Shown one piece after another: positions 15,849 to 58,071 of a stretch of 64,000 nt of DNA (the first letter of the stretch is position 1; every line of letters begins with the position of its first letter). The DNA comes from Chryseolinea lacunae. Its GTDB lineage: Bacteria; Bacteroidota; Bacteroidia; Cytophagales; Cyclobacteriaceae. The translations under genes were made by a program, and so were the position numbers. Where the stretch lies: the NCBI RefSeq assembly GCF_016735595.1, contig NZ_JAERRB010000007.1:62001-126000 (forward strand), written 5' to 3'. Under the pieces are notes generated by a model. It made no database searches. It was not told the origin of the DNA and was given only the letters and a program-made list of their open reading frames with translations.

Positions 15849-15947
15849 TTCACAACGTTTGAGACGTGTGGGGGTGACGTTGTTAATGGTCATTGCCAAA
15901 TTCATGTGTAATCTGAAGGCGTGCAATTCTTAGGCGGTCTTGCTTTA

Positions 15948-16120
15948 GGAGACTCCTATGGAGTCGGGTCATTGGGTTAGTTCGTCGTTCTATAGACAGG
16001 ATGATTTCTATAGATCTACGCAAGCAGAATGCCCGATAGCTGTGTGCTGTTTTGCTCCGTCGGAGCACCTTGCCTATAGATATGTTCGGCTTTGTGTGGA
16101 TTGACTCCGTAGGAGTCTCC
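15948..16120. repeat. Cluster of CTCC-NNN-GGAG palindromes flanking CTATAG motifs
   Basis: Three short palindromes share one plan: gactcctatggagtc (15951-15965), gctccgtcggagc (16054-16066) and gactccgtaggagtc (16103-16117). The outer two extend to 18-base arms (15948-15965 and 16103-16120) that are reverse complements except one base. Between them are two tctataga-type palindromes and a cctatagata at 16074-16083. No gene was found in 15849-16283. The ordered symmetry suggests a dispersed palindromic element rather than decay. Confidence 0.65.
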
Positions 16121-16283
16121 TACGGTCGATACGGGTTCTTTGTGACTGGAAGGCGAAGGTCAGAACGACCTGGTGATTTTGATTTGTGTGAATGCTCTTG
16201 GGAGGCGTGTGGCGCCAACGTTACCAATAAAATGACTCTAAATGCTGGGGGATAGGCTTTTTGGGCGACGGGGTCGCGTGGGG

Positions 16284-16538
16284 TTATCTTCCGGGGATCA
16301 GCTTGTCGCAAAACTTGAGGAAGCTGTTGCGGCCTGCTTCCAGGAGCAGGAGTTGTTGGCTTTCGATGAGTTCGGCGAGATAGAGGTCCATGATGTGCAT
16401 CGGTTGGCCGAGGCGCGTCACTTCATCGGCCGGGCTATAGGCCTCAACGGCATACAAATCGGCTCCCCATCCCATCCGTTGTACTCTCCAGACCTGATTG
16501 AAACCTTCGTGCTTGTACTTTCCTGAAAGATCTTTCAT
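16284..16538 (-). CDS. Small hypothetical protein, 84 aa
   Basis: The protein starts 'MKDLSGKYKHEGFNQVWRV' and contains 'PMHIMDLYLAELIESQQLLL'. It is soluble, with a short beta region then helices. Support comes from an ATG preceded 21 bases upstream by TACTTTCG (minus strand, 16560-16567), one base off the TAnnTTTG -7 box, and from codon use like neighbouring genes. No family was recognised. It is isolated between two gene-poor stretches. Confidence 0.5.
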   Translation of the reverse strand: MKDLSGKYKHEGFNQVWRVQRMGWGADLYAVEAYSPADEVTRLGQPMHIMDLYLAELIESQQLLLLEAGRNSFLKFCDKLIPGR

Positions 16539-17191
16539 AACGTGTTTTTTATTGTGATGCGAAAGTAGTCAATCCCAACGTAATCTGATTTGGTTTTGTT
16601 AGGTGCGGTTGCAGCAGAATGTTTTCATGCCCGTGTTTTGGTTGTCCAAATTCAAATGACGACGTGTTGAGTGATGAAAAATATTATTTGGAACGGTATG
16701 TTTTGTCGATCATACTTCATAGAAAAGCAGTAGCCCATAAGTGATTTTGCCTGTGATGCTGTGACCGACCTGCTTTTTAGCATGATGCAACGGTGTGCAT
16801 AGGGTGTTTGTTTAAGGAGCTTTGGTGTGAATGCGATGAAGAGTTGCGTTGAGATCTCGTTGCTGCGGTCAAGTGGTTGATGAATGGTGCATGGTGCGTC
16901 TTTCGTCATCCTTTTTGCGCAACCCTCATCATATTTTGATACCTAAATAAAGGGTGGGTGCAAGGGCAATACGGGGGCGGGTGATATTATCCAGTTGGAT
17001 GTGAACAACGCCGCCGTTGGATGTAGCATCCACCAACCGTTAAAGGATTGATGGGCGTGGAAACACATGGTTTATATACCGCCAGATGGGTTAGCTTTCC
17101 CGACTAGCCATCACTTTTTAGCCGCTCAGGCACACATTCCTACCTAGTGTTAGCATAGAATATTATATTCGCGGATAACTCAATTAACCCT
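16539..17191. other. Gene-free stretch upstream of the M13 peptidase
   Basis: About 650 bases with no convincing gene. An 85-codon minus-strand frame (16652-16909) has no family-like features and a poor start. There is a hairpin-forming gttggatg/catccaccaac segment near 17016-17037. TATATTCG at 17164-17171 is a possible -7 box for the peptidase gene, without a matching -33 element. Nothing else is supported. Confidence 0.4.
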
Positions 17192-19252
17192 ATGAAAAAA
17201 CTAGCACTAGCGGTTTTAGCTGGCGTCGCGATGTCTGCGGTTTCGTGTTCTTCCGATAAAAAGAAGGACGAAGCTGTGGTGGATGTTGGTCTGAACCTTT
17301 CTTACGTCGACACCACCGTGCGGCCGCAAGACGATTTCTTTAAATATGTGAACGGTGGATGGATTGGCAAAACCAACATCCCGGCCGACCAGGGCCGTTG
17401 GGGGTCGTTTAACGAGCTCCGCGAATTCAACAACGATGTGGTGTTGAAGGTCCTGAAAAAAGCAGGCGAAGATGCAAAGCTCTATCCCGAGGGAACCGAC
17501 CAGCGCAAGGCGGCCGATTTCTATTCTATCGGCATGGACTCTGCCCTGGCCGAACACGTGGGCGTTGGCCCCATCAAGCCGCTGCTGGCCAAGATCGAGG
17601 CCGTGAAAAGCAAAAACGATATTCAGACCTACCTGGTTGAAGATGTGATGACCGGCGGTGGCGCCTTCTTTGGTTTTGGCATCTTGCCCGACCTGAAGAA
17701 CAGCAAGAAGATGGCCGCCTACCTGGGTTCGGGCGGACTGGGATTGCCGGAACGTGACTACTATCTGAACACCGACCCCAAGTCGGTGGAAACACGCGCC
17801 AAATATGAGGAACACCTCGCCACGCTCTTCAAGCTTTCGGGCGAAGACGAAGCCAAGGCAAAAGCCAATGGCGCCCTGGTGCTGAAGCTGGAAACACAGC
17901 TGGCCAAATCCATGCTCAGCAAGGAAGACCGCCGCAACCCCGTGAAGCAATACAACCCCAAGTCGTTGAAAGACCTGGCCAAACTCACGCCCTCCGTGAA
18001 CTGGCCAGCCTATTTCGAAGGCCTGAAGGTGAAGGAAGACACTATCATTGTGTCGGAACCCGCCTTTTTGCAGGAATATGAAAAGGTGGTGAACAGCTAC
18101 ACCATCGACCAGGTGAAAACCTATCTGAAGGCGGCCCTGCTCCGTGGCGCGGCGCCCTTTCTTAGCCACGATTTTGTGGAAGCCTCGTTCGACTTCAACA
18201 CCCGCTACATGCGCGGCACCGACAAGATGCGTCCCCGCTGGAAGCGCGTGCTGGATGTGACCGACAGCTACCTGGGCGAAGCCATAGGCAAGCTCTATGT
18301 TGACGATGCTTTCCCGCCTGAAGCAAAGCAGAAAGCCCTCGAAATGGTAGAGAACATCAAGCTGGCCTTTGCCGACCGCATCAAGAGCCTCGACTGGATG
18401 TCGGACTCCACCAAGCAACGCGCCCTGCATAAACTGAGCACGTTCACCGTGAAGATCGGCTACCCGGATAAGTGGAAAGACTATTCGGGCCTCGCCATCG
18501 AGAAGGCTCCCGAAAAGGCATCCTACTTTGGCAACGTGCTGAGCGCAGCGCGCTTCCAGGTGCAACACGAGATCGAAAAGCTGGGCAAACCAGTAGACAA
18601 AACCGAGTGGGAGATGACCCCGCAAACGGTGAACGCCTACTACAATCCCTTGTTCAATGAAATTGTTTTCCCCGCGGGCATTCTGCAACCTCCGTTCTAT
18701 AACTACCGTGCCGACGAGGCCGTGAACTATGGCGGCATCGGTGCTGTGATTGGCCACGAAATCTCGCACGGCTTCGACGATCAGGGTTCGCAGTTTGATG
18801 CCGATGGCAACCTGAAAAACTGGTGGGCCTCGACCGACCTCACCAAGTTCCAGGAAAAAGGCGGTGCTTATGCAGGCCAGTTCGACAAGTATGAGCCGTT
18901 GAAGGGCGTGTTTGTGCAGGGCAAGTTCACGCTCGGCGAAAACATTGGCGACCTCGGCGGCCTTGCTGTGGCCTATGAAGGACTGCAGCTCTATTTGAAA
19001 AACCACGGCCGTCCCGAACTCATAGGTGGCCTCACACCCGAGCAACGTTTCTTCATGTCGTGGGGCACCATCTGGCGTGTTAAATACAGAGACGAGTCGT
19101 TGCGCACGCAGGTGCTCACCGATCCGCACTCGCCGGGCATGTATCGCGCCAACGGCCCGCTCTCTAACTTCGATCCGTTCTATAAAACGTTCGATGTGAA
19201 GGAAGGCGACAAGATGTTCCGCCCGGAAAGCGAACGTGTGAAGATCTGGTAA
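17192..19252 (+). CDS. M13 (neprilysin/PepO-like) zinc metallopeptidase, lipoprotein
   Basis: 686 residues. The N-terminus 'MKKLALAVLAGVAMSAVSCS' is a lipoprotein signal, so it is anchored outside the cytoplasm. Peptidase features are complete: 'NAYYNPLFNEIVFPAGILQP', zinc site H522-E523-x-x-H526 in 'GHEISHGFDDQG', and the third ligand E583 in 'ENIGDLGGL'. M13 enzymes cleave oligopeptides. Length matches the family. The gene appears monocistronic: an imperfect hairpin (accgcaaag at 19267-19275 with ctttgcggt at 19323-19331) may end it before the THX promoter. Confidence 0.93.
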   Translation: MKKLALAVLAGVAMSAVSCSSDKKKDEAVVDVGLNLSYVDTTVRPQDDFFKYVNGGWIGKTNIPADQGRWGSFNELREFNNDVVLKVLKKAGEDAKLYPEGTDQRKAADFYSIGMDSALAEHVGVGPIKPLLAKIEAVKSKNDIQTYLVEDVMTGGGAFFGFGILPDLKNSKKMAAYLGSGGLGLPERDYYLNTDPKSVETRAKYEEHLATLFKLSGEDEAKAKANGALVLKLETQLAKSMLSKEDRRNPVKQYNPKSLKDLAKLTPSVNWPAYFEGLKVKEDTIIVSEPAFLQEYEKVVNSYTIDQVKTYLKAALLRGAAPFLSHDFVEASFDFNTRYMRGTDKMRPRWKRVLDVTDSYLGEAIGKLYVDDAFPPEAKQKALEMVENIKLAFADRIKSLDWMSDSTKQRALHKLSTFTVKIGYPDKWKDYSGLAIEKAPEKASYFGNVLSAARFQVQHEIEKLGKPVDKTEWEMTPQTVNAYYNPLFNEIVFPAGILQPPFYNYRADEAVNYGGIGAVIGHEISHGFDDQGSQFDADGNLKNWWASTDLTKFQEKGGAYAGQFDKYEPLKGVFVQGKFTLGENIGDLGGLAVAYEGLQLYLKNHGRPELIGGLTPEQRFFMSWGTIWRVKYRDESLRTQVLTDPHSPGMYRANGPLSNFDPFYKTFDVKEGDKMFRPESERVKIW

Positions 19253-19352
19253 GCAGAAAGATATAGACCGCAAAGGCGTGAGCGTGCCCGGGTTTCGGCA
19301 ACGAATGCTTGCAGGCTGACGGCTTTGCGGTTAAAATTTATTTCATCTGCAG

Positions 19353-19383
19353 TTTGTAATAAAACGATACTTTACTATTATTG
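19353..19383 (+). promoter_or_regulatory. Promoter of the THX-trp transcription unit
   Basis: TTTG at 19353-19356, exactly 19 bases, then TATTATTG at 19376-19383. This fits the Bacteroidota TTTG-N19-TAnnTTTG promoter with one mismatch in the -7 box. Transcription would start near 19388, about 17 bases before the THX start codon. It is the only good promoter seen upstream of the trp leader. Confidence 0.65.
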
Positions 19384-19405
19384 CCCTCGCTAAGCGCAAA
19401 CAAAA

Positions 19406-19594
19406 ATGGGAAAAGGAGATAAAAAATCTAAAAAAGGAAAGATCTGGAGAGACTCTTATGGCAACTCCAGAAGCCGTGCAGCCCTGAAGGCCAAGTTGAA
19501 GAGAACAGCTTCGAAGAAGACTGTAGCAGATGCTGGCACAGGTGAAGCAGCAGCAAAACCCAAAAGAACGGCGGCTAAAAAGAAAGACGCATAA
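19406..19594 (+). CDS. 30S ribosomal protein THX
   Basis: 62 residues, very basic, beginning 'MGKGDKKSKKGKIWRDSYGN', the typical opening of the small THX (S31e/Thx) ribosomal protein that sits in the head of the 30S subunit. The C-terminal half is a low-complexity Ala/Lys tail ('KRTASKKTVADAG...AAKKKDA'), as common in Bacteroidota members. The stop codon lies only six bases before the trp leader peptide, with no terminator in between, so THX probably shares its transcript with the trp operon. Confidence 0.85.
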   Translation: MGKGDKKSKKGKIWRDSYGNSRSRAALKAKLKRTASKKTVADAGTGEAAAKPKRTAAKKKDA

Positions 19595-19600
19595 AATCAC

Positions 19601-19657
19601 ATGATTAGATTTACAAACATTGCATGGTGGTGGCACAGATCGGAACTCGATATGTGA
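19601..19657 (+). CDS. trpL: trp operon leader peptide with three tandem Trp codons
   Basis: An 18-codon frame translates to MIRFTNIAWWWHRSELDM. Three consecutive TGG codons lie at 19625-19633 and TGA at 19655-19657. Trp is rare, so three in a row in a short frame directly upstream of a terminator hairpin and trpE is the hallmark of ribosome-mediated attenuation. The stop codon overlaps the segment (19653-19662) that can pair with the terminator's 5' side. The peptide itself is expected to have no function beyond sensing charged tRNA-Trp through ribosome stalling. Confidence 0.88.
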   Translation: MIRFTNIAWWWHRSELDM

Positions 19658-19722
19658 ACAGCCTTGTTATGACTTTTAAAATAAGCCGAAGGCCTGCTGT
19701 TCACAGCAGGCCTTCTTTTTTT
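19653..19722 (+). promoter_or_regulatory. trp attenuator: antiterminator and terminator alternatives
   Basis: tgtgaacagc (19653-19662) is exactly complementary to gctgttcaca (19696-19705), which forms the 5' stem end and loop of the terminator. If a ribosome stalls at the Trp codons, 19653-19662 is free and the antiterminator forms, so trpE is transcribed. If it reaches the stop codon it covers this segment and the terminator forms. The geometry matches classical attenuation: stall site about 20 bases before the switching segment. Confidence 0.87.
19688..19722 (+). terminator. Attenuator terminator hairpin before trpE
   Basis: gaaggcctgctg (19688-19699) pairs perfectly with cagcaggccttc (19704-19715) around the loop ttca, followed by seven T (19716-19722). 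It lies 28 bases before the trpE start codon and 30 bases after the leader stop codon. A 12-bp perfect stem inside an operon leader would block trpE expression by default. Confidence 0.93.
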
Positions 19723-19750
19723 GTCCAAACACAACCCTTTGAAAACGCAG

Positions 19751-21157
19751 ATGAAGTATCAACTCAAGACCTACGCAAAGAAACTCCTGGCCGACACCCT
19801 CACGCCGGTGAACATCTACCTGAAGTTGCGCGATGTGTATGCCGGAAGCATTTTGCTGGAGAGCTCCGACTATCACGGCCACGAAAACAGTCTTTCCTAT
19901 ATATGTTGCGACCCCATCGCCTCCTTCCAGGTGAACGGCAACACCGCCGAGAGCCGCTATCCCGATGGCAAGATTGAAAAGCAAACCATCACCAAAATAG
20001 GGCAGGTAACAACACTGCTCGAAGACTTCAAGAATTGCATCGAGCCTGACCGAATTCCTTCTCAATATGCCAACTGCGGCTTGTTTGGCTACATGACCTA
20101 CGACGCCATCCGCTTCTTCGAAGACGTGAAGATCAGCAAAGCCGACCAGGCCATTCCCGATGTGTTGTATAAGCTCTACCGCTACGTCATCATTGTGAAC
20201 CACTTCAGCAACGAGCTCAGCCTCTACGAGCATTGCTACGAACAAGGCAAAGACACCTGCCGCAGCACGCTCGATCGCGTGGAGCAAATCATCTTCAGCA
20301 ACAAATTCTCTACCTATAAATTCACCCTCACCGACAGCGAAACGTCGAACGTGGAGGACGAAGAATTCCTGAAGATCATCGAGAAGGGAAAAGAACATTG
20401 CTATCGCGGCGATGTGTTTCAGATTGTGTTGTCGCGTCGCTTCACCACGGGCTTCAAAGGCGACGAGTTCAATGTGTATCGCGCGCTGCGTTCCATCAAT
20501 CCCTCGCCCTATCTTTTCTATTTTGACTATGGCAGCTTCAAGCTGTTTGGCTCATCGCCCGAAGCACAGTTGCAGGTGAGCAACGGCAAGGCTCATATCT
20601 ATCCCATTGCCGGAACCTTCCGCCGCTCGGGCAACGACCAGGAAGACGCCGCGCTGGCCGAGAAACTCGCCGCCGACGAAAAAGAAAATGCCGAACACGT
20701 GATGCTGGTAGACCTTGCCCGCAACGACATGAGCCGCAACGCCGAACACGTGACGGTGGAAGTGTTCAAGGAAATACAATTCTACTCGCACGTGATTCAC
20801 CTCGTATCAAAAGTAACGGGCGCACTCAAACCCGAGACATCGATCGTGAACATTGCGGCCGACACGTTCCCCGCCGGCACACTGTCGGGCGCGCCCAAAC
20901 ACATGGCCATGACGTTGATCGATAGCTACGAGAACGTGAACCGCAGTTTCTATGGTGGCGCCATCGGCTTCATGGGCTACGACGGGTCGTATAACCACGC
21001 CATCATGATCCGCACGTTTCTCAGTCGCGAGAACAAACTCATCTTCCAGGCCGGTGCCGGTGTGGTGTCGAAATCGAAAGCTGAGAGCGAACTACAGGAA
21101 GTGAACAACAAACTCGCCGCCCTGCGCAAGGCCGTGCAGCTGGCAGAGAAAATATAA
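19751..21157 (+). CDS. trpE: Anthranilate synthase component I
   Basis: 468 residues from the ATG at 19751; a TTG frame extension to 19721 lies inside the terminator tail and is rejected. TrpE makes anthranilate from chorismate with ammonia supplied by TrpG. The N-terminal Trp-feedback motif 'ILLESSDYHG' (LLESS) is intact, so feedback inhibition is expected. Chorismate-binding motifs follow: 'PIAGTFRRSGNDQ', 'MLVDLARNDMSR', 'FPAGTLSGAPKHMAM' and 'GAGVVSKSKAESEL'. It is the first enzyme of the pathway and the first gene after the attenuator. Confidence 0.96.
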   Translation: MKYQLKTYAKKLLADTLTPVNIYLKLRDVYAGSILLESSDYHGHENSLSYICCDPIASFQVNGNTAESRYPDGKIEKQTITKIGQVTTLLEDFKNCIEPDRIPSQYANCGLFGYMTYDAIRFFEDVKISKADQAIPDVLYKLYRYVIIVNHFSNELSLYEHCYEQGKDTCRSTLDRVEQIIFSNKFSTYKFTLTDSETSNVEDEEFLKIIEKGKEHCYRGDVFQIVLSRRFTTGFKGDEFNVYRALRSINPSPYLFYFDYGSFKLFGSSPEAQLQVSNGKAHIYPIAGTFRRSGNDQEDAALAEKLAADEKENAEHVMLVDLARNDMSRNAEHVTVEVFKEIQFYSHVIHLVSKVTGALKPETSIVNIAADTFPAGTLSGAPKHMAMTLIDSYENVNRSFYGGAIGFMGYDGSYNHAIMIRTFLSRENKLIFQAGAGVVSKSKAESELQEVNNKLAALRKAVQLAEKI

Positions 21158-21199
21158 TCGCGAAGAAAACCTAAGACATACCCATCATACCGACACGAC

Positions 21200-21766
21200 A
21201 TGAAAATTCTGGTCCTCGATAACTACGATTCTTTTACCTACAACCTGGTGCACATTCTCCGCGCGCTGAAATATCCGCTCGACGTTTTTCGCAACGACAA
21301 GATTGCGTTAGAAGATGTGAAGGCCTACGACAAGATATTGCTCTCGCCCGGCCCCGGCATTCCCGACGAAGCGGGCATCATGAAAGCCGTGGTGCGCGAA
21401 TATGGCGCCACCAAAAGCATCCTGGGCATTTGCCTCGGCCATCAGGGCATTGGCGAAGTGTATGGCGCGAAGCTGTTCAACATTCCCAAAGTGCTGCACG
21501 GCGTCACGTCGATGGCCACGGTGAAAGACCGCAGCGAATATCTGTTTGAAAATGTATCCGACACCTTTCAGGCCACACACTATCACTCCTGGGCCGTGGT
21601 GCCCGAAAGCATCCCCGCCGACCTGCGCGTGACGGCCGTGAACGATGAAGGCCTGGTGATGGGCCTCAGCCACGTGCGTCACGATGTGAAGGGATTGCAA
21701 TTCCACCCCGAGTCCATCATGACACCCGAAGGGCCAAGGATGATTGAGAGCTGGCTGAAGCATTAG
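21200..21766 (+). CDS. trpG: Anthranilate synthase component II (glutamine amidotransferase)
   Basis: 188 residues, a class I glutamine amidotransferase. It hydrolyses glutamine and channels ammonia to TrpE. The catalytic triad is visible: Cys in 'GICLGHQGIGEVYG' and His/Glu in 'LQFHPESIMTPEG'. 'LLSPGPGIPDEAG' is the oxyanion-strand motif. It may also serve 4-amino-4-deoxychorismate synthase (PabA role), as no separate pabA is seen here. It lies 42 bases after trpE. Confidence 0.94.
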   Translation: MKILVLDNYDSFTYNLVHILRALKYPLDVFRNDKIALEDVKAYDKILLSPGPGIPDEAGIMKAVVREYGATKSILGICLGHQGIGEVYGAKLFNIPKVLHGVTSMATVKDRSEYLFENVSDTFQATHYHSWAVVPESIPADLRVTAVNDEGLVMGLSHVRHDVKGLQFHPESIMTPEGPRMIESWLKH

Positions 21767-21869
21767 TATGTATATGTCTTATTATATAAAATGAATATCT
21801 GAAGAAGAAATAAACACGCAGCCCTAGAGCCGGTCACGGCCAGTCTGCGAAACCACAAGCATCAACACC

Positions 21870-22856
21870 ATGAAAGAAATACTGAACGAACTCATCGACC
21901 ACCGCTCGCTCACAAAAGATTCGGCGAAGAAAGTGCTGGTCGATCTGGCTTCCGGAAAATACAACCCCAGCCTCACCACGGCCTTTATGACGGTCTACAT
22001 GATGCGCAGCATAACCGTTGACGAGCTACAGGGCTTTCGCGACGCCATGCTGGAGCTCTGTGTGCCCGCCCGCTTCGACCAACCTGTGATGGACGTGTGC
22101 GGCACCGGCGGCGACGGCAAGAACACCTTCAACATGTCTACACTCTCGTCGTTTGTGGTGGCCGCTGCGGGGCAGCCTGTGGCCAAACACGGCAACTACG
22201 GTGTGTCGTCCGCTTGCGGATCGTCGAACTTGCTCGAATATTTTGGCTACACCTTCACCAACGACATCGGCACGTTGAAGCGCAGCCTCGACCGCGCCAA
22301 CATCTGCTTTATGCACGCGCCCCTGTTTCACCCCGCCATGAAAAATGTGGCGCCCATCCGCAAGGAGCTGGGCGTGAAAACATTCTTTAACATGCTCGGC
22401 CCTATGGTGAATCCGTCGTTCCCCACACGACAGCTGGTGGGCGTGTTCAGTCTTGAGCTGGCCCGTCAATACGGCTATCTCTATCAAAACACGGAGAAAG
22501 ATTTCCTCATTCTCCACTCGCTCGATGGCTACGACGAAGTGTCGCTGACGGGCGCGTTCAAGTTCTTTCACAACGGTGGCGAGAAAGTGCTGGAGCCGAC
22601 CGACCTGGGCCTGCCACAACTGAAGCACGACGACATTCGCGGCGGCAACACCGTGGAAGAATCGGCAAAAGTTTTTATGAACGTGCTGGAAGGAAAGGGC
22701 ACACCCGCACAGGAAGCTGCCGTGATTGCCAACGCCTCGATGGCGCTCTTCACCGGTCACCAAAACGAAGGCTTGCCCCGCGCCGTGGAGCGTGCCACCG
22801 AAGCACTCCGGTCGGGCAAAGCCCTGCAGGCCTTTAAGAAACTGATGGAAAAATAA
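21870..22856 (+). CDS. trpD: Anthranilate phosphoribosyltransferase
   Basis: 328 residues. It transfers the phosphoribosyl group of PRPP to anthranilate. Motifs are complete: 'DVCGTGGDGKNTFNMST' for PRPP, 'KHGNYGVSSACGSSNLLEYF' and 'FFNMLGPMVNPS' for anthranilate binding. The N-terminal helical domain begins 'MKEILNELIDHRSLT'. The gap to trpG is 103 bases, the longest inside this operon; it has no clear terminator or promoter. It is a separate gene, not fused to trpG as in enterobacteria. Confidence 0.95.
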   Translation: MKEILNELIDHRSLTKDSAKKVLVDLASGKYNPSLTTAFMTVYMMRSITVDELQGFRDAMLELCVPARFDQPVMDVCGTGGDGKNTFNMSTLSSFVVAAAGQPVAKHGNYGVSSACGSSNLLEYFGYTFTNDIGTLKRSLDRANICFMHAPLFHPAMKNVAPIRKELGVKTFFNMLGPMVNPSFPTRQLVGVFSLELARQYGYLYQNTEKDFLILHSLDGYDEVSLTGAFKFFHNGGEKVLEPTDLGLPQLKHDDIRGGNTVEESAKVFMNVLEGKGTPAQEAAVIANASMALFTGHQNEGLPRAVERATEALRSGKALQAFKKLMEK

Positions 22857-22877
22857 GAATCGCTAAACGTTTCATTC

Positions 22878-23681
22878 ATGAACATCCTGGACCAGATTAT
22901 CGAACACAAGAAAACGGAAGTGGAGCAACGCAAAAGTCTCTACCCCGTGAAGCTGCTGGAACAAAGCATCTACTTTGCCACACAGCCGGTGTCGATGAAA
23001 AAATACATACAACGCGAAGACCTGTCGGGCATCATTGCCGAGATCAAACGCAAGTCGCCTTCCAAGGGCGTCATCAATCCACACGTGTCAGTAGAACGTA
23101 CGTCTATTGGCTATATGCAGGCGGGTGCGTCGGCATTGTCGGTGTTGACCGATACAAACTTCTTTGGTGGCAGCAACGACGATCTTACCACAGCCAGAAA
23201 GTTTAATTTCTGTCCCATTCTCCGGAAGGACTTCACCATCGATGAATATCAGATTGTAGAAGCAAAATCCATCGGTGCCGATGCCATTCTGTTGATTGCC
23301 GCTGCGCTGGAGCCAAAGCGTTTGAAAGCCCTGGCCGACTTCGCCCACTCGTTCAAACTTGAAGTGTTGTTGGAAGTGCACAACCTCGAAGAATTGCAGG
23401 CCAGCCTCGACGCCGGTGCCGACCTGATGGGTGTGAACAACCGGAACCTCAAGACGTTTGAATTGAGCGTGGAGATCTCGAAGCAACTGGCCCAACACAT
23501 TCCCGACTCGATGGTGAAGGTGTCGGAGAGCGGCATCGAATCGGTAGAGACAATTATGGAACTGAAGAAGTATGGCTACGAAGGATTTTTGATGGGGCAG
23601 AACTTCATGCAACACAGTCGCCCCGAAGTGGCCTGCAAGGAGTTTATAGACGAACTGAACAAGGCATCACGACAAGCCTGA
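22878..23681 (+). CDS. trpC: Indole-3-glycerol phosphate synthase
   Basis: 267 residues, a (beta/alpha)8 barrel. It closes the indole ring by decarboxylating CdRP to indole-3-glycerol phosphate. Visible motifs include 'IIAEIKRKSPSKGVI' (substrate lysine), 'ILRKDFTIDEYQI', 'LMGVNNRNLKTFEL' and 'VKVSESGIES'. Not fused to trpF. Its last base is shared with the first base of the trpF start codon, indicating translational coupling. Confidence 0.95.
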   Translation: MNILDQIIEHKKTEVEQRKSLYPVKLLEQSIYFATQPVSMKKYIQREDLSGIIAEIKRKSPSKGVINPHVSVERTSIGYMQAGASALSVLTDTNFFGGSNDDLTTARKFNFCPILRKDFTIDEYQIVEAKSIGADAILLIAAALEPKRLKALADFAHSFKLEVLLEVHNLEELQASLDAGADLMGVNNRNLKTFELSVEISKQLAQHIPDSMVKVSESGIESVETIMELKKYGYEGFLMGQNFMQHSRPEVACKEFIDELNKASRQA

Positions 23682-24319
23682 TGGAACGCAACCTGAAGAT
23701 CAAGATTTGTGGCATGCGCGAACCCGCCAACATCCTGTCGGTGGCGGCACTTGCACCCGACTACATGGGGTTTATCTTCTATGGAAAGTCACCACGCTTT
23801 GTCGGCGATACGTTCAGGGTCCCCACGGCATTTCCCGAAAGTGTGAAGCGTGTGGGTGTGTTTGTGAATGAGACGATAGAATCGATTCGCACACTCGCCA
23901 CCATTCACCATCTGCCGTTTGTGCAGCTTCACGGCAACGAAGCCCCCGAGCAATGTGCGGCGCTGCAGGAGGCCGGTCTTAAAGTGATCAAAGTGTTTTC
24001 GGTGGGAGAGGGCTTTGACTGGGAAACAACCACACCCTACAAAACCGTGTCTGACTTCTTTCTCTTCGACACCAAAGGCAAACATTATGGCGGCAACGCG
24101 GTGACGTTTGACTGGAAGATTTTGAAACGCTACGACCAGGAGATACCGTTCTTTCTTAGCGGTGGCTTGACACCGGCCAACATCAAAGACGTAGCAACCC
24201 TGAAAGGCATGAACCTTCACGCCCTGGATGTGAACAGCGGTGTGGAAGATGCCCCGGGAAAGAAGGGCATTGTGAAAGTGAAGGCCTTGTTTAAAGAAGT
24301 GGAACTGCTTGCGTTCTAG
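23681..24319 (+). CDS. trpF: Phosphoribosylanthranilate isomerase
   Basis: 212 residues, a (beta/alpha)8 barrel carrying out the Amadori rearrangement of PRA to CdRP. The catalytic Cys is in '[12 protein letters not shown]' and the general acid Asp in the '[12 protein letters not shown]' region. '[13 protein letters not shown]', '[12 protein letters not shown]' and '[10 protein letters not shown]' fit the family. The start overlaps the trpC stop by one base (TGATGG). Confidence 0.94.
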
Positions 24320-24359
24320 AACGCAGACAGAAAATATACGATATCAAAAACATAACATC

Positions 24360-25541
24360 ATGAAATACACAGTAAACGAAAAAGGATACTACGGCAAATT
24401 CGGTGGCGCATTCATTCCCGAAATGTTGTATCCCAACGTGGAAGAACTACGCACGCGCTACCTCGACATTATCTACGAGGCGGGCTTTCAGAAAGAATTT
24501 CAAAAGCTCCTGCGCGACTATGTGGGCCGCCCCACACCGCTCTATCTTGCCAAACGTCTCTCGGAAAAATACAACACCAACATTTATCTGAAGCGCGAAG
24601 ACCTTTGCCACACGGGTGCTCACAAGGTGAACAACACCATTGGTCAGATCTTGCTGGCGCGCCGTCTGGGCAAGCAGAAGATTATTGCCGAAACTGGCGC
24701 GGGTCAACACGGCGTGGCCACGGCCACCGTGTGTGCCCTCATGGGCATGGAGTGTGTGGTCTACATGGGAAAGATTGATATGGAACGCCAGCGCCCCAAC
24801 GTGGAGCGTATGCGTATTCTGGGAGCCACCGTGGTGCCGGCGCTGAGCGGAAGCATGACGTTGAAAGATGCCACCAACGAAGCGATGCGCCACTGGATCA
24901 ACAATCCTACTGACACGCACTACATCATTGGCTCGGTGGTGGGCCCGCATCCCTATCCCGACATGGTGGCCCGCTTCCAGTCGGTGATCAGCGAAGAAAT
25001 GAAAAAGCAATTGCAGGAAGAAATAGGCAACCCGTTTCCCGACTATGTGTTTGCCTGTGTGGGCGGCGGCAGCAATGCAGCGGGTGCCTTCTATCATTTC
25101 CTGAACGACGAACACGTGACGCTGGTCGCCGCCGAAGCCGCAGGCCACGGTGTGGACTCGGGCGAATCGGCCGCCACCACAGCCCTGGGCAAACCCGGCG
25201 TGCTGCACGGCAGCAAAACCATTCTGATGCAGACGGACGATGGCCAGGTGGTGGAACCCTATTCCATATCGGCCGGTCTTGACTATCCCGGCATCGGCCC
25301 GCAACACGCGCACTTGTTTGACGTGGGCCGCGCCAAGTTTGTGAGCATCACCGACGAAGAAGCCATGAATGCGGGCATCGAGCTGAGTCGCAGCGAAGGC
25401 ATCATTCCCGCCATTGAGTCGGCCCATGCGCTGGCCGCCATGAACAAATTCACGTTCGAGAAAGACGATGTGGTGGTGGTGAACCTGTCGGGTCGCGGCG
25501 ACAAGGACCTGGAGACGTATATCCGTTGGGGTAAGTACTAG
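24360..25541 (+). CDS. trpB: Tryptophan synthase beta chain
   Basis: 393 residues from the ATG at 24360; the frame extends upstream to 24309 but that start lies inside trpF. It condenses indole with serine using PLP. The PLP lysine is in '[17 protein letters not shown]', the phosphate loop is '[12 protein letters not shown]', and '[10 protein letters not shown]' and 'DAEATGHG'-like '[13 protein letters not shown]' are present. It acts as an alpha2beta2 complex with TrpA encoded next. This is the ordinary TrpB1 type by length. Confidence 0.96.
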
Positions 25542-25589
25542 GAATCCCGCATACACAAATCATCCCCAACCAAACGTAAAAACAACAAC

Positions 25590-26372
25590 ATGAAAAATAG
25601 AATCACAGATGTGTTTGCTTCCGGCAAGAAGAACATTCTTTCCGTTTACTACACCGCCGGATTCCCCACACTGAACAGCACCGTAGCGATTGCCGAAGCT
25701 TTAGAGAAAGGTGGCGCCGACATTATCGAGATCGGCATTCCTTACTCTGACCCCGTAGCGGACGGCCCCACCATTCAGGAGAGCAACAAGATTGCACTCG
25801 ACAACGGCATCAACCTGCCCATGATCCTGGAACAGGTGAAGACCATTCGCAAAACGGTGAAGCTGCCGATCATCCTGATGGGCTATGTGAATCCCGTGAT
25901 CCAGTATGGCATCGAGAAGTTCGCAAAAGATGCGTCCGCCGCAGGGGTAGACGGTGTGATCCTGCCCGACCTTCCTATGGATGCTTTCCTTGAAGAATAT
26001 AAGCCGGTGTTTGATGCTGTGAACCTCAGCAACACATTCCTCATTTCGCCAACTACATCCGAAGAACGTATCCGGAGAATTGATGCCGTTACCGAAGGAT
26101 TCATCTATGCCGTGTCGGCGTCGAGCATCACCGGTGCCAAGGCAGATTTTGCGGGGCCTCAACTGCAGTACTTCGACAAACTGAAACAGATGAAATTGAA
26201 GAATCCGTTTCTTATCGGGTTCGGCATTTCCAACAACGCCACGTTTGCCACGGCATCGTCATACGGCGCCGGTGCCATTGTGGGCAGCGCCTTCATCAAC
26301 GTATTGAAAGCATCAACTAACATCAGCGCCGACGCGCAAGCCTTTGCCACGTCGCTGAAAACCAAGGCATGA
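25590..26372 (+). CDS. trpA: Tryptophan synthase alpha chain
   Basis: 260 residues. It cleaves indole-3-glycerol phosphate to indole and glyceraldehyde 3-phosphate and passes indole to TrpB. The catalytic Glu is in 'DIIEIGIPYSDPVADGP' and the Asp in 'GVILPDLPMDAF'. 'FLISPTTSEERIRRI', 'YAVSASSITGAK' and 'IGFGISNNATFATA' are the phosphate-binding and barrel-closing motifs. It is the last trp gene; the DAHP synthase gene starts four bases later. Confidence 0.95.
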   Translation: MKNRITDVFASGKKNILSVYYTAGFPTLNSTVAIAEALEKGGADIIEIGIPYSDPVADGPTIQESNKIALDNGINLPMILEQVKTIRKTVKLPIILMGYVNPVIQYGIEKFAKDASAAGVDGVILPDLPMDAFLEEYKPVFDAVNLSNTFLISPTTSEERIRRIDAVTEGFIYAVSASSITGAKADFAGPQLQYFDKLKQMKLKNPFLIGFGISNNATFATASSYGAGAIVGSAFINVLKASTNISADAQAFATSLKTKA

Positions 26373-26376
26373 TCGT

Positions 26377-27387
26377 ATGATTATAAAACTGAAACCGTCC
26401 ATCGCGTCGCCCGAGAAAGAGGCGATTGTGAGCAACATCAAAAGCCTGGGCTACAAAACCACCGAGGTGAAAACGCAGCAGCATGTCTACCTCGTGGGCA
26501 TTGGCAAGAAAGAATTCGATATCCGCCTGCTGGGCCACATGCCCGGCATCGCCGACATCCACCAGGTGTCTGACGACTACAAGCTGGTGTCGCGCAAGTG
26601 GAAAGTGCAACGCACGCATCTCGATTTGGGCGATGGTGTAGTGATTGGAAACGGCACACTGTCGATTATGGCAGGACCGTGTTCGATCGAAACCGAAGCA
26701 CAGGTGCAGCAAACGCTCGATCACCTGGTGAAGAACGGTGTGCGCATCATGCGGGGTGGCGTGTTCAAACCACGCAGCTCACCCTATGCCTTTCGCGGGC
26801 TTGGGGTGGACGGGCTCAAGATGTGGCACACGCTGGCGCGCAAGGCCGGCATCAAAATCATTAGCGAGGTGATGCAGGTGAGCCAGATTGCAGAGATGCA
26901 TGACTACGTGGATGTGTTTCAGGTAGGCGCGCGCAATACCCAAAACTTCAACCTGCTCGACGAACTTGGTCGTGTAGACAAAGCAGTGATGATTAAACGT
27001 GGCATTTCAGGGACCATCGAAGAGCTTTTGTACTCAGCAGAGTATGTGTTCGCTGCGGGCAACGAAAAGCTGATGCTCTGCGAGCGCGGCATCCGCACCT
27101 ACGAGAAAGCCAGCCGCAACACCATGGACATCAACGCCATTCCCATCCTGAAAGAAAAAACACATTTGCCCGTCATCGCCGATCCTTCGCATGGCATTGG
27201 TATTCGCGAATATGTGGAACCGGTGGCCCTGGCCGCAGTCATTGCCGGCGCTGATGGTGTGATCTATGAAACACACCAGAAGCCCGAAGAAGCCGCCTCC
27301 GACGGACAACAGACGCTGGACTTTAAAGAGTCTGAACGCCTCATTCACAAACTGCGCAAGCTGCACGAACTGCGTGAGAATTTTTAG
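26377..27387 (+). CDS. aroF: 3-deoxy-7-phosphoheptulonate (DAHP) synthase, class I-beta
   Basis: 336 residues. The first ~75 form the ferredoxin-like regulatory domain known from the Thermotoga enzyme. The catalytic barrel follows with 'MAGPCSIETEAQV', 'MRGGVFKPRSSPYAF', 'VFQVGARNTQNFNLL', 'MIKRGISGTIEELL' and 'PVIADPSHGIGIRE'. It condenses PEP with erythrose 4-phosphate, the first step toward chorismate. No chorismate mutase domain is fused. Its place four bases after trpA puts the pathway's entry step under the same attenuator as its Trp branch. Confidence 0.93.
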   Translation: MIIKLKPSIASPEKEAIVSNIKSLGYKTTEVKTQQHVYLVGIGKKEFDIRLLGHMPGIADIHQVSDDYKLVSRKWKVQRTHLDLGDGVVIGNGTLSIMAGPCSIETEAQVQQTLDHLVKNGVRIMRGGVFKPRSSPYAFRGLGVDGLKMWHTLARKAGIKIISEVMQVSQIAEMHDYVDVFQVGARNTQNFNLLDELGRVDKAVMIKRGISGTIEELLYSAEYVFAAGNEKLMLCERGIRTYEKASRNTMDINAIPILKEKTHLPVIADPSHGIGIREYVEPVALAAVIAGADGVIYETHQKPEEAASDGQQTLDFKESERLIHKLRKLHELRENF

Positions 27388-27429
27388 GAAGCGATAGTAC
27401 ATTTACGTTGACATAGAAACAGCACACCC

Positions 27430-27780
27430 ATGACGGTTTACGGAATCAAGAATTGCAACACGGTGAAGACAGCCCTCGACTGGCTGAAACAACACCACGT
27501 GGACATCGACTTTCACGACTATAAAACCAAAGGCATCACCGCTGCCAAACTCAAAGCATGGAGCAAACAGGTAGGGTGGGAGAGCCTGGTGAACAAACGC
27601 GGCACCACCTGGCGCCAACTGGACGAAGTCGTGCAGAAGAAGATTACCAGCGAAGCTGCTGCCATCGAGTTGATGATGGAAAAAACGAGCGTTATCAAAC
27701 GCCCGCTCATCGAAGAAGATGGCAAGGTGCTGGCGTTGGGATTCGACGAAGAGAACTACAAGACGACGTTCAAAGGCTAA
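27430..27780 (+). CDS. ArsC/Spx-like family protein (YffB type)
   Basis: 116 residues. It has the thioredoxin-fold ArsC pattern: 'YGIKNCNTVKTALDWL' with a single N-terminal Cys, 'DFHDYKTKGIT', 'NKRGTTWRQLDE' and 'SVIKRPLIEEDGKVLALGFD'. The pattern matches the YffB branch rather than true arsenate reductase, whose Cys-x5-Arg motif is absent. A reductase or regulator role through glutathione or RNA polymerase is possible but unproven. It is 42 bases after aroF and converges with the histidine kinase gene. Confidence 0.8.
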   Translation: MTVYGIKNCNTVKTALDWLKQHHVDIDFHDYKTKGITAAKLKAWSKQVGWESLVNKRGTTWRQLDEVVQKKITSEAAAIELMMEKTSVIKRPLIEEDGKVLALGFDEENYKTTFKG

Positions 27781-27783
27781 CCG

Positions 27784-29400
27784 CTACGCGGGAAGGGTGA
27801 CGCGGAAGCGTGTGCCCTGGTGAAGCACGCTGTCCACTTCAATGGAACCATTCAGTTTTTCCACCTGCTGTTTCACCAGGTAAAGGCCCAGGCCCTTTCC
27901 GGGAATGTGGTCGTGGAAGCGCTTGTAGAGTTTATAGAGATCTTGACGGTAGCGCGCCAGGTCAATGCCCAATCCATTGTCGGTCACTTCCAGCACAAGT
28001 GTGTCGTTCTCCTGCAACGAAGCGATGTGGATATTGGCAGCGCGTTCGGGCGACCGGTATTGAATGGCGTTGCTGATGAGGTTGTAGAGAATGCTGCTCA
28101 CGTAGGCACGAACCGACACGAACGAGTCGCCCTTCGAGAAATCGTGCGTGATGTTGATGTTGTTGTCGTCGATAAAAACCTTGAGCGACTCCGTGATGAT
28201 CGACAGCACTTGTGGCAACTCCACGCGTTCGTTGATGTTGAACTTGTCGTGCCGGATGTCAATGATCTTGTTGAGGTCTTTGATCACCGTTTCGAGCGAC
28301 ATGGCCGACTGTTCGATGAGTTTGAGAATGTGCTTGCGATCGGCTTCACTCTCGGAAAGATTGGTGATGTTGATGAGACCCAGCAAGCTGGCCACGGGGC
28401 CGCGAAGGTTGTGCGATACGGTATACGAAAATTGTTCGAGTTCCGAATTGCGCGACACCAGTTGCTGGTTGGTCTGCAACAGGTCTTGTTTCTTTTCGGC
28501 CAGCAAGTGTTCGAGCAATTGATTCTGGTTTTCCAGTTCCACCTTTTGTTCCTCAATCTTGTGGTTGGCCATCATGAGGCTTTCCTGGCTTTGCATAAGC
28601 TCTTCGCTTTGCGCCTGTATTTCTTCATTCTGCGTTTCGATGTCCTGGTTCAGTTGAAACAGCTCGCGGTTGTTTTTTTCGAGCAGCTCGTTCTTTTCGT
28701 TCAGGTTGTCGATGAGACGTTCGTTCAGCAATTCAAAATCTTCGAACAGGTTCTTCAGGAAGATCACACTGCCCATCAGGAAGAGAGCGGCCACGAGTGT
28801 GACAAGATTGTTTCCCAGGTAACGCGCCAGGCTATAGGCCGTGTAGCGATCGGAGCTAAAGTAGAATAACGCAGGGTCAAGCAAAATAAGAATGGCCATG
28901 TTGATGAACACGGCCGCGATCAGCAGCTTGCGTTCGCGGATGCTGAACACCATGAGCGGCACAATGCAGGTGGCCAGAATAATGCAAAACACCTGTGGGC
29001 TACGGGGCAGGTAATGAAAACGGTTTGGGTCGAGCACCCGGGGCAGGAGTATGATCACACACGCCGCGATGGGCACCAGAATGCCCAGAATGAAACGGCT
29101 CACGTTGAACCACCGGCTGTCGTTCAGGATCAGAATGAAACACAGCACCACCAGCATGGTGAGGTTGATGGTTGCGCTGGCGTTGAGGTGCCATTGGTTT
29201 CGGCTGAGCTGGTGAATAAACACGATGCTGGCCAGCACCGCCGTGATCAGCACCAGTGCGTTGGTGAGCACAATGGTGCGCATGAGCGACCGCGAAAGCT
29301 TACGGTGAATGCCCGCATACAGGATTCTCTGGATAATTCTTTTCAACGGAGATCGTTCAGGTTTTGGTGGCAAGGTAATTTCACGACGGAATCCAGTCAA
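27784..29400 (-). CDS. Membrane sensor histidine kinase with coiled-coil linker
   Basis: Up to 538 residues. About six membrane segments (roughly 40-215) precede a long coiled coil rich in Gln/Glu/Asn (about 220-325). The HisKA domain has phosphorylated His near 332 in 'FSYTVSHNLRGPVASLLGLI'. The ATPase shows 'LYNLISNAIQYR', 'EVTDNGLGIDLARY' and 'IPGKGLGLYLVKQQVEK'. No receiver domain and no adjacent response regulator. The listed start is TTG inside the end of hemF (20-base overlap); a TTG at 29346 ('LKRIIQRILYAG') is an alternative. No ATG exists before residue 40. Confidence 0.85.
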   Translation of the reverse strand: MTGFRREITLPPKPERSPLKRIIQRILYAGIHRKLSRSLMRTIVLTNALVLITAVLASIVFIHQLSRNQWHLNASATINLTMLVVLCFILILNDSRWFNVSRFILGILVPIAACVIILLPRVLDPNRFHYLPRSPQVFCIILATCIVPLMVFSIRERKLLIAAVFINMAILILLDPALFYFSSDRYTAYSLARYLGNNLVTLVAALFLMGSVIFLKNLFEDFELLNERLIDNLNEKNELLEKNNRELFQLNQDIETQNEEIQAQSEELMQSQESLMMANHKIEEQKVELENQNQLLEHLLAEKKQDLLQTNQQLVSRNSELEQFSYTVSHNLRGPVASLLGLINITNLSESEADRKHILKLIEQSAMSLETVIKDLNKIIDIRHDKFNINERVELPQVLSIITESLKVFIDDNNINITHDFSKGDSFVSVRAYVSSILYNLISNAIQYRSPERAANIHIASLQENDTLVLEVTDNGLGIDLARYRQDLYKLYKRFHDHIPGKGLGLYLVKQQVEKLNGSIEVDSVLHQGTRFRVTLPA

Positions 29401-56650: not shown

Positions 56651-58071
56651 TGCTCTGGTTAACACAAATTTTCGGACGCTTCCATCCACTGCTGGTGCAC
56701 TTGCCCATCGGCATACTCATCATCGGGTTTCTGTTCGAGTGCCTGGCATTCTGGAACACCTATCGCATGTTGCGCAGGGCGGTGCAGCCCACACTGTTTC
56801 TCGGTGCGCTGTCGGCCATTATTTCGGCAGTGAGTGGATTTTTTCTTTCGCGCGAGGGCGGCTACGACGATCGCCTGCTGATGCTTCATCAGAATTTTGG
56901 AATTGCCACAGCGGCGTTCGCCACACTGCTGTTCTTTGTTCGCAAAAGCGTGGTCACCTATTTCCCCGATAAGAAGCGGCGGAGGATCGTTCGCATTTTC
57001 ATGTATGCTCCTTTGATGGGATTGCTTTCTATAACCGGCCACCTCGGTGGCTCGATGACCCATGGCGAAGACTATCTCTTCGCGCCCCCCGCACAAGATG
57101 AGAAAACGGCTACCCCCTCGGTAAAAATAACGTCCATTGCCGCGGCCGATAGTGCCGTGCTGTATGCCGATGTAATTGAGCCAATCCTGGAAGCCAAATG
57201 CTACAGCTGTCACAGTTCGGCCAAACAAAAAGGACAGCTCAGGCTCGACAGCGAAGAACACATTCGAAAAGGAGGGAAGCACGGCGAGGTGTTGGTGCGC
57301 GGTGTGGCCGATTCGAGCAGCCTGTATGGTCGTTTGATGTTGCCGCTGGAAGACGAAAAACACATGCCCCCAAATGAGAAGCCCCAGCTTTCATCGTCAG
57401 AAATTGCATTGGTGCAGGCTTGGGTTGAAGACGGTGCAAGCTTTAACAAACGCATCGGAAGTTTTCAGCAACACGACAGAATCAAAGGATACCTGGCTGC
57501 GTTGCTCACACATCCCGACAAGGACGAAAGCATCCCCGAATGTGATGTGAGCGCCGCCGACGACAACGCCGTGCGTGCATTGACCTCGCGCGGTGTTTTG
57601 ATTTTGCCCGTGGGCGAAGAGAGCCACTATTTGTCGGTCAGTTTTGTAAATGCCCGCAACACCGGCGACGCCGATCTGCAAACCCTTTTGCCGCTGAAAC
57701 AACAGATCGTATGGCTCAATCTGAGCCGCTCCAAGATTACCGACGAAGGCCTCAAGACGGTGGCCCAACTCTCCGGCATACGCCAGCTGCAACTGGAATA
57801 CACGGCAGTAGGCGATGCGGGCCTCAATCACCTGACATCGCTCGAACAGCTGAGATTGCTCAACGTCGTGGGCACAAAAGTGACCGACGCCGGCGTGGCC
57901 AGTCTCTCGCCATTAACAAATCTGAAAAAGCTTTTCCTCTATCAAACCACCGTCACCGCCGAAGGCATCCGCAAGTTTCAGTCATCAACGCCCGCTGTGA
58001 TTGTCGACACCGGAAGCTATCAATTGCCGGTGCTGGCAACGGACTCTGTGGTTTACAAGCGCAAGACTTAG
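56650..58071 (+). CDS. Membrane protein with DUF2231-like segment, PSCyt1 haem domain and LRRs
   Basis: 473 residues from the ATG at 56650 (TGATG overlap). Four membrane segments (about 10-160, 'HPLLVHLPIGILIIGFLFEC') form a DUF2231-like domain. A periplasmic cytochrome domain follows with haem motif 'AKCYSCHSSAKQKG' and Met ligand region 'EDEKHMPPNEKPQ'. The end (about 325-455) has leucine-rich repeats, such as 'IVWLNLSRSKITDEGLKTVA'. It could pass electrons across the membrane for the exported enzymes of this cluster. The LRRs may bind partners. The domain combination is typical of Planctomycetes. Confidence 0.85.
   Translation: MLWLTQIFGRFHPLLVHLPIGILIIGFLFECLAFWNTYRMLRRAVQPTLFLGALSAIISAVSGFFLSREGGYDDRLLMLHQNFGIATAAFATLLFFVRKSVVTYFPDKKRRRIVRIFMYAPLMGLLSITGHLGGSMTHGEDYLFAPPAQDEKTATPSVKITSIAAADSAVLYADVIEPILEAKCYSCHSSAKQKGQLRLDSEEHIRKGGKHGEVLVRGVADSSSLYGRLMLPLEDEKHMPPNEKPQLSSSEIALVQAWVEDGASFNKRIGSFQQHDRIKGYLAALLTHPDKDESIPECDVSAADDNAVRALTSRGVLILPVGEESHYLSVSFVNARNTGDADLQTLLPLKQQIVWLNLSRSKITDEGLKTVAQLSGIRQLQLEYTAVGDAGLNHLTSLEQLRLLNVVGTKVTDAGVASLSPLTNLKKLFLYQTTVTAEGIRKFQSSTPAVIVDTGSYQLPVLATDSVVYKRKT

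What the first reader, a model, noticed from the sequence alone, without database searches (positions are those of the whole stretch)
19601..19722. Complete ribosome-mediated trp attenuator with a WWW leader peptide in a Bacteroidota operon
The sequence directly shows an 18-codon frame with three consecutive Trp codons, a perfect 12-bp terminator with seven T, and an exact 10-bp antiterminator (19653-19662 with 19696-19705) that includes the leader stop codon. The switching segment lies about 20 bases past the Trp codons, as required. Attenuation of trp operons is established in enterobacteria; I do not know whether this exact form has been described in this lineage. The Trp-sensing switch here would also cover aroF, the entry step of the aromatic pathway.
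Basis: partly seen in the sequence, partly recalled or inferred. Interest (0 to 1): 0.85.

Follow-up and report, generated by a model that had tools for sequence, protein, structure and literature searches.

The report
Tryptophan attenuator behind a ribosomal-protein gene
A short RNA switch that should turn the tryptophan-making genes on when tryptophan runs out is really there and belongs to a type already known in this bacterial phylum; what looks new is that in this genus it seems to have no promoter of its own and follows directly behind a ribosomal-protein gene.

Summary
Comparison shows it is real: 132 of 175 Bacteroidota trpE upstream regions carry a WWW leader (0 of 875 shuffles), and the antiterminator strands co-vary (GTGA with TCAC in 80 of 91 loci; TCAC in 3 of 30 without GTGA). 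The class is known: Rfam RF01692 "Bacteroid-trp" (2010). The window is a divergent relative, 26.3 bits against a cut-off of 49.

The new part lies outside the given coordinates. The leader starts 6 nt after the stop codon of the single-copy bTHX ribosomal-protein gene. All 13 TrpE-tree members of this clade have thx within 15 nt, leaving no room for a promoter. The one good Bacteroidota-type promoter match in 12 kb lies upstream of thx; elsewhere such a match usually lies just upstream of the leader (78 of 115). So the trp operon is probably an extension of the thx transcript, leader translation coupled to bTHX. Nothing was tested at the bench.

The parts
19353..19383 (+). Bacteroidota-type promoter match TTTG-N19-TATTATTG (9 of 10 consensus letters) upstream of thx
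   Evidence: Only match of 9/10 or better on the + strand of 15849-27800 (0.65 expected from shuffles, so its place, not its existence, is the evidence). Same element 9/10 in 13 of 14 fused loci, 2.9% of shuffles. Consensus recalled; the form TAnnTTTG is also quoted in PMC6414381.
19406..19594 (+). thx, 30S ribosomal protein bTHX (62 aa), first cistron
   Evidence: NCBIfam TIGR04560 50.2 bits, cut-off 26; Pfam PF17070 33.8, cut-off 29.7; a second THX model, NF011339, 32.8 bits, is under its cut-off of 58. One match in each of 6 genomes of the genus.
19601..19657 (+). trpL leader peptide MIRFTNIAWWWHRSELDM*, starts 6 nt after the thx stop and in its frame
   Evidence: NIAWWWH in 8 of 9 near leaders (L001, L084-L089, L004, L009; the ninth, L088, has KIAWWWH), 18 codons in all 9 (L088 counted from its ATG).
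19625..19633 (+). three Trp codons, the sensor
19618..19671 (+). protector hairpin (1:2): the Trp-codon strand pairs with the antiterminator strand
   Evidence: Folded; RNAalifold consensus on 14 loci with changes on both sides in several pairs.
19653..19662 (+). segment 2, 5' strand of the antiterminator; holds the leader stop codon
   Evidence: own-versus-swapped test; GTGA/TCAC co-occurrence.
19696..19705 (+). segment 3, 3' strand of the antiterminator; overlaps the top of the terminator stem and its loop
19688..19715 (+). intrinsic terminator, 12-bp stem, loop TTCA
   Evidence: covariation on 14 loci.
19716..19722 (+). T7 tract
19751..21157 (+). trpE, anthranilate synthase component I
   Evidence: TIGR00564 416 bits, below its own cut-off of 517.7; Pfam PF00425 261 and PF04715 96 bits, both over cut-off.
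21200..21766 (+). trpG
   Evidence: TIGR00566 over cut-off.
21870..22856 (+). trpD
   Evidence: TIGR01245 over cut-off.
22878..23681 (+). trpC
   Evidence: NF001377 over cut-off.
23681..24319 (+). trpF
   Evidence: PF00697 over cut-off; the NCBIfam isomerase models are under theirs.
24363..25541 (+). trpB
   Evidence: TIGR00263 over cut-off.
25590..26372 (+). trpA
   Evidence: TIGR00262 over cut-off.
26377..27387 (+). aroF-type DAHP synthase, 4 nt after trpA
   Evidence: NF006421 and TIGR01361 over cut-off; gap.

Best explanation
This is a ribosome-mediated tryptophan attenuator of the Bacteroid-trp type, placed as the second cistron of the bTHX mRNA. RNA polymerase starts upstream of thx (about 19390). 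Ribosomes that finish bTHX are thought to reinitiate at the leader ATG 6 nt further on. If Trp-tRNA is scarce they stall on the three UGG codons; this uncovers segment 2 (19653-19662), which pairs with segment 3 (19696-19705) before the terminator is complete, and polymerase reads on into trpEGDCFBA-aroF. If Trp-tRNA is plentiful the ribosome reaches the UGA inside segment 2, masks it, and the terminator 19688-19722 forms, leaving a roughly 330-nt thx mRNA. Shown by sequence: the anatomy, its conservation, the pairing, the position of the only good promoter match. Inferred: the transcription start, stalling, reinitiation, termination in the cell, and that no other promoter serves the operon.
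For: Anatomy exact. WWW leaders in 132 of 175 trpE upstream regions, 0 of 875 shuffles. Folds with a ribosome at any of the three Trp codons, RNA ended at 19705, give the antiterminator (-15.2 kcal/mol); with the ribosome at the stop codon it cannot form (-2.3) and only the terminator remains. Own segment 2/3 duplexes beat the swapped mean in 66 of 81 representatives. In four sister loci (L005, L006, L065, L135) the terminator core reads CCGATC or CCGATT and segment 2 the matching GATCGG or AATCGG; in L090 CCGAA goes with TTCGG (read). GTGA is kept whether read as stop (61 loci) or as Val (28). Model R1 hits 44 of 59 genomes (own included) at E <= 0.01; in 36 of these the best hit lies directly upstream of trpE, in 2 (G039, G058) before a trpG-like gene of a split operon. 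thx: in the TrpE tree the 13 fused loci make up one whole branch, 100/100; promoter match upstream of thx 9/10 in 13 of 14 fused loci, best inside thx plus gap 6/10.
Against: No transcript, ribosome-profiling or termination data. At full length the terminator is always more stable than the antiterminator (-25.8 against -15.7 kcal/mol), so antitermination depends on timing. 43 of 175 trpE regions have no WWW leader found and 25 not even WW (a few of the 175 have under 300 nt of upstream DNA). Own duplexes lie in the best 5% of swaps in only 19 of 81. 6 of the 44 R1 genomes have their best hit elsewhere than a trp operon that I looked at. The promoter evidence is a string match; the 14th fused locus, L090, has only an 8/10 match without TA, at the shuffled rate of 16%; a different promoter type inside thx would be missed. 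Searches do not correct for relatedness beyond the 80% filter. Reinitiation is inferred from spacing alone.
Confidence: 0.85

Rival explanations
1. The attenuator works as described but has its own promoter inside thx, of a kind the consensus scan does not see; thx is only a neighbour.
For: The scan covers one promoter type only. In E. coli the pheM attenuator follows the ribosomal-protein gene rplT (adjacency seen; that it also has its own promoter is recalled).
Against: No TTTG/TAnnTTTG match better than 6/10 inside thx plus gap in 14 loci, whereas 78 of 115 non-fused WWW leaders have 9/10 or better within 90 nt upstream. The sigma-70-like scan lists no + strand site between 19406 and 19600 either.
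Confidence: 0.15
2. The hairpin is simply the terminator of thx and the WWW frame is chance.
For: TGGTGGTGG is common in this genome, 618 matches on both strands.
Against: WWW leader, pairing and position are kept across the phylum where thx is not adjacent.
Confidence: 0.02
3. Ribosomes read through the thx stop codon and make a bTHX-leader fusion, so the sensor is the tail of bTHX itself.
For: The leader is in the thx frame: the gap is a multiple of 3 in 13 of 14 fused loci.
Against: Frame is expected to persist by descent between two coding stretches; each leader has its own ATG, in L088 a TTG and then an ATG.
Confidence: 0.03

Closest known systems
Bacteroid-trp RNA, Rfam RF01692 (Weinberg et al. 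2010, PMC2864571)
   Same: Phylum, Trp-leader role by its Rfam title, hairpin over the UGG run, GGAACA/GUGAACA stretch, start of the terminator stem; aligned end to end with the window. Model R1 and RF01692 hit overlapping places upstream of trpE in G051.
   Different: 26.3 bits against the gathering score of 49; terminator core GGCCUGCUG instead of GGCUUGUC; no own promoter found, follows thx.
E. coli trp attenuator (trpL)
   Same: Same logic (recalled): Trp codons, 1:2 protector, 2:3 antiterminator, 3:4 terminator.
   Different: WWW instead of WW (recalled); the window matches no Rfam family at its gathering score; the leader is not the first cistron.
E. coli rplT-pheM-pheST attenuator
   Same: Attenuator leader next to a ribosomal-protein gene (rplT-pheM adjacency seen).
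   Different: Senses Phe and controls a tRNA synthetase; own promoter and larger spacing (recalled).

Membership tests
RF01692 Bacteroid-trp | score at or above the curated gathering score of 49 bits | tested here: not met
   26.3 bits; no hit at gathering. Of the 20 loci given to, 3 pass (L141, L121, L041); none of the six genus loci among them does.
RF01692 Bacteroid-trp | Trp-rich leader frame upstream of trp biosynthesis genes in Bacteroidota | tested here: met
   That this defines the family is from its Rfam title and PMC6414381 passages.
RF01692 Bacteroid-trp | homology by intermediates | tested here: met
   G051 upstream of trpE: R1 54.1 bits at 57283-57413 and RF01692 65.5 bits at 57307-57433. 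One locus only; R1 E-values are rough.
Ribosome-mediated transcription attenuators | mutually exclusive antiterminator and terminator switched by ribosome position | tested here: met
   By folding only; co-variation.
Ribosome-mediated transcription attenuators | amino-acid-dependent termination in the cell | not testable with these tools
   Needs RNA 3'-end mapping.
bTHX (TIGR04560) | score over curated cut-off | tested here: met
   50.2 bits, cut-off 26; the other THX model NF011339 is not met, 32.8 against 58.

The most novel reading that the evidence does not exclude
In one clade of Cyclobacteriaceae-like bacteria the trp operon lost its own promoter and became the attenuated extension of a ribosomal-protein transcript: supply of trp enzymes is set by the bTHX promoter multiplied by a Trp-tRNA switch whose leader is translated only by ribosomes arriving from bTHX, which ties tryptophan synthesis to ribosome production.
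Probability: 0.5. Interest if true: 0.55.

Novelty: new variant of a known kind. Interest (0 to 1): 0.42.

Why it matters
It shows that the curated phylum-level family misses nearly all of these relatives (1 of 59 genomes over the cut-off, own included and with stricter filters, although a WWW leader is found before 37 of their 52 trpE genes). If the thx arrangement works as proposed, it is a natural case of an amino-acid operon wired to a ribosomal-protein promoter and of an attenuator whose leader depends on translational coupling, in a phylum that hardly uses Shine-Dalgarno starts (recalled). That would make transcription-translation coupling in Bacteroidota directly testable.

Tried and rejected
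Chance WWW frame or plain thx terminator: rejected. A second copy of the attenuator elsewhere in the genome: not found, next best R1 hit 34 bits; the weaker hits were not examined one by one. Other Rfam families, such as RF00506 Thr_leader, appear only below their cut-offs. The idea that aroF is the sole entry enzyme: not held, (of the other two PF00793 genes, L193 has DAHP synthase plus chorismate mutase domains; L194 has the first alone and is probably KDO8P synthase, recalled, not tested). Frame kept between thx and leader as a sign of readthrough: explained by descent. G051:C45 R1 hit (L188): no Trp-rich leader seen by eye, dropped.

Literature: searches. Bacteroid-trp is named in 3 papers; no paper held both 'protein THX' and trpE, and none held 'tRNATrp gene', trp operon and attenuat together. 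The library is open-licence PMC only, so this does not show absence from print. Papers seen as passages: PMC2864571 (for Bacteroid-trp only its row of Table 1), PMC6414381, PMC4833913, PMC6429828, PMC1173090, PMC5371410; the rest only as search listings. Lopatovskaya et al. 2010 was seen only as a reference.

Rows left out: G111 (its TrpE match begins at base 19 of the contig, no upstream DNA). The 43 class regions come from 42 genomes (G069 twice; G000, G021 and G048 were already in the relatives set); 103 of the 149 class genomes had no TrpE match at E <= 1e-100 and were not looked at. The relatives set of 59 and its 52 trpE regions include the window's own genome. One search used the 115 WWW leaders outside the fused group with 100 nt of upstream DNA, and letter shuffles that keep only base composition. 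One search used 138 of 175 loci (leader with WW, terminator found, right spacing) and 81 representatives; one search used the 121 of these with WWW. The fused group of 14 is defined by its small gap, so '14 of 14' is no test; the test is that its 13 members with full TrpE fill one branch with no other row in it (for L135 only 33 codons were fetched). tRNA genes were sought in 30 of the 175 loci.

Full report
What is there. The sequence at 19601-19722 is as described: an 18-codon frame with WWW at 19625-19633, a 12-bp perfect terminator (19688-19699 with 19704-19715) followed by T7 to 19722, and a 10-bp perfect alternative pairing (19653-19662 with 19696-19705). The fold of the region is 4 standard deviations below shuffles, 0 of 200 as good.

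How it would switch. Folding only the RNA that a ribosome leaves free (A-site plus 16 nt, a rough assumption) gives the antiterminator at -15.2 kcal/mol for a ribosome on any of the three Trp codons when the RNA ends at 19705; with the ribosome at the stop codon the antiterminator cannot form (-2.3) and only the terminator remains. Without a ribosome the Trp-codon strand pairs with segment 2 and the terminator forms. Once the whole RNA is made the terminator is the more stable state in every case folded, so the choice is made by timing, as recalled for E. coli.

Conservation. I collected 175 trpE upstream regions: 80 named loci, 52 from the 59 nearest genomes including the window's own, 43 from an even draw of the class (46 of 149 genomes had a TrpE match at the threshold). 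WWW leaders: 75 of 80, 37 of 52, 20 of 43; at least WW: 78, 43, 29. Controls: reverse complement WWW 0 of 175, WW 4 of 175; shuffles WWW 0 of 875, WW 24 of 875. The element is widespread in the class but not universal. Model R1, built from 14 loci, hits 44 of 59 genomes at E <= 0.01: by my count of the listed places the best hit is directly upstream of trpE in 36, before a trpG-like gene in 2 (G039, G058), and elsewhere in 6 (G018, G035, G045, G048, G052, G054).

Pairing evidence. Real segment 2/3 duplexes average -12.6 kcal/mol, swapped ones -9.7; own better than the swapped mean in 66 of 81 representatives, but in the best 5% of swaps in only 19 and of letter shuffles in 39. GTGA occurs within 45 nt after WWW in 91 of 121 loci (5 of 121 in the 45 nt before the leader), read as a TGA stop in 61, as Val in 28 and in the third frame in 2; the partner TCAC is in the terminator in 80 of these 91 and in 3 of the 30 without GTGA. 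In L005, L006, L065 and L135 the terminator core and segment 2 have changed together (CCGATC or CCGATT with GATCGG or AATCGG), in L090 CCGAA with TTCGG (read). RNAalifold on 14 loci gives the protector hairpin and terminator, with both-side changes in 16 of 32 pairs, though the covariation term is small, -2.1 of -38.6 kcal/mol.

Known family. Rfam RF01692, Bacteroid-trp, is titled Bacteroidete tryptophan peptide leader RNA and was published in 2010 (table row only). A 2019 paper likens it to the E. coli trp leader and notes it upstream of the trp operon of Flavobacterium psychrophilum (passages). The window aligns to it end to end at 26.3 bits, under the cut-off of 49; 1 of 59 genomes passes. 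R1 and RF01692 meet upstream of trpE in G051. I therefore treat it as a divergent relative that works like the family and formally misses its score.

The thx neighbour. The frame 19406-19594 is 30S ribosomal protein bTHX, with one match in each of 6 genus genomes. Its stop is 6 nt before the leader ATG. Among 175 regions, 18 have thx found upstream of the leader: in 14 the gap is -1, 0, 3, 6 or 15 nt, in 4 it is 39, 57, 75 and 185 nt. The 13 of these 14 with full TrpE fill one branch of a 44-row tree, 100/100, with no unfused row in it; all 6 genus genomes are fused. A Bacteroidota-type promoter match of 9/10 lies upstream of thx in 13 of 14 fused loci, spacing 18-20 (2.9% of shuffles); L090 has 8/10, which shuffles give in 16%. 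Nothing above 6/10 lies inside thx and the gap. Of 115 WWW leaders elsewhere, 78 have 9/10 or 10/10 within 90 nt upstream of the leader ATG, against 3.2% of shuffles. In the window the match at 19353-19383 is the only one on this strand in 15849-27800 (0.65 expected by chance). Open frames of 60 codons or more ending within 40 nt of the leader occur in 2 of 114 other loci. The simplest reading is that the clade lost the trp promoter and lives on readthrough from thx. This is an inference from sequence.

Operon. trpEGDCFBA-aroF follow with gaps of -1 to 103 nt and no promoter match of 9/10 between. aroF is under the same switch if the operon is one transcript, but a DAHP synthase-chorismate mutase protein is encoded elsewhere.

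Verdict. A real attenuator of a described kind, in an unusual arrangement.

Noticed in passing
L033 2888-2961 (Xanthocytophaga flavus); also L198 and L199: A second tRNA-Trp gene (anticodon CCA, 74% identical to the other tRNA-Trp copy of that genome) lies between the trp attenuator terminator and trpE; a tRNA-Trp upstream of trpE was seen in 3 of the 8 genomes searched (G205, G211, G212). In L199 the leader itself was not read. The attenuator that senses Trp-tRNA would also control a tRNA-Trp gene.
   Followed up: partly
L189 (G027), L045 and L077 (Rufibacter): Two leader-terminator units with Trp codons in tandem before trpE: two R1 hits in G027 and read by eye in all three.
   Followed up: partly
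L186 (G039) and L187 (G058): trpE lies on another contig and a leader with WFW plus terminator precedes trpG-, trpD- and trpC-like frames (named by eye), so the attenuator seems to follow the pathway genes when the operon is split.
   Followed up: partly
window 19601, relative to thx 19406-19594: The leader is in the reading frame of thx in 13 of 14 fused loci; probably descent, not tested further.
   Followed up: partly
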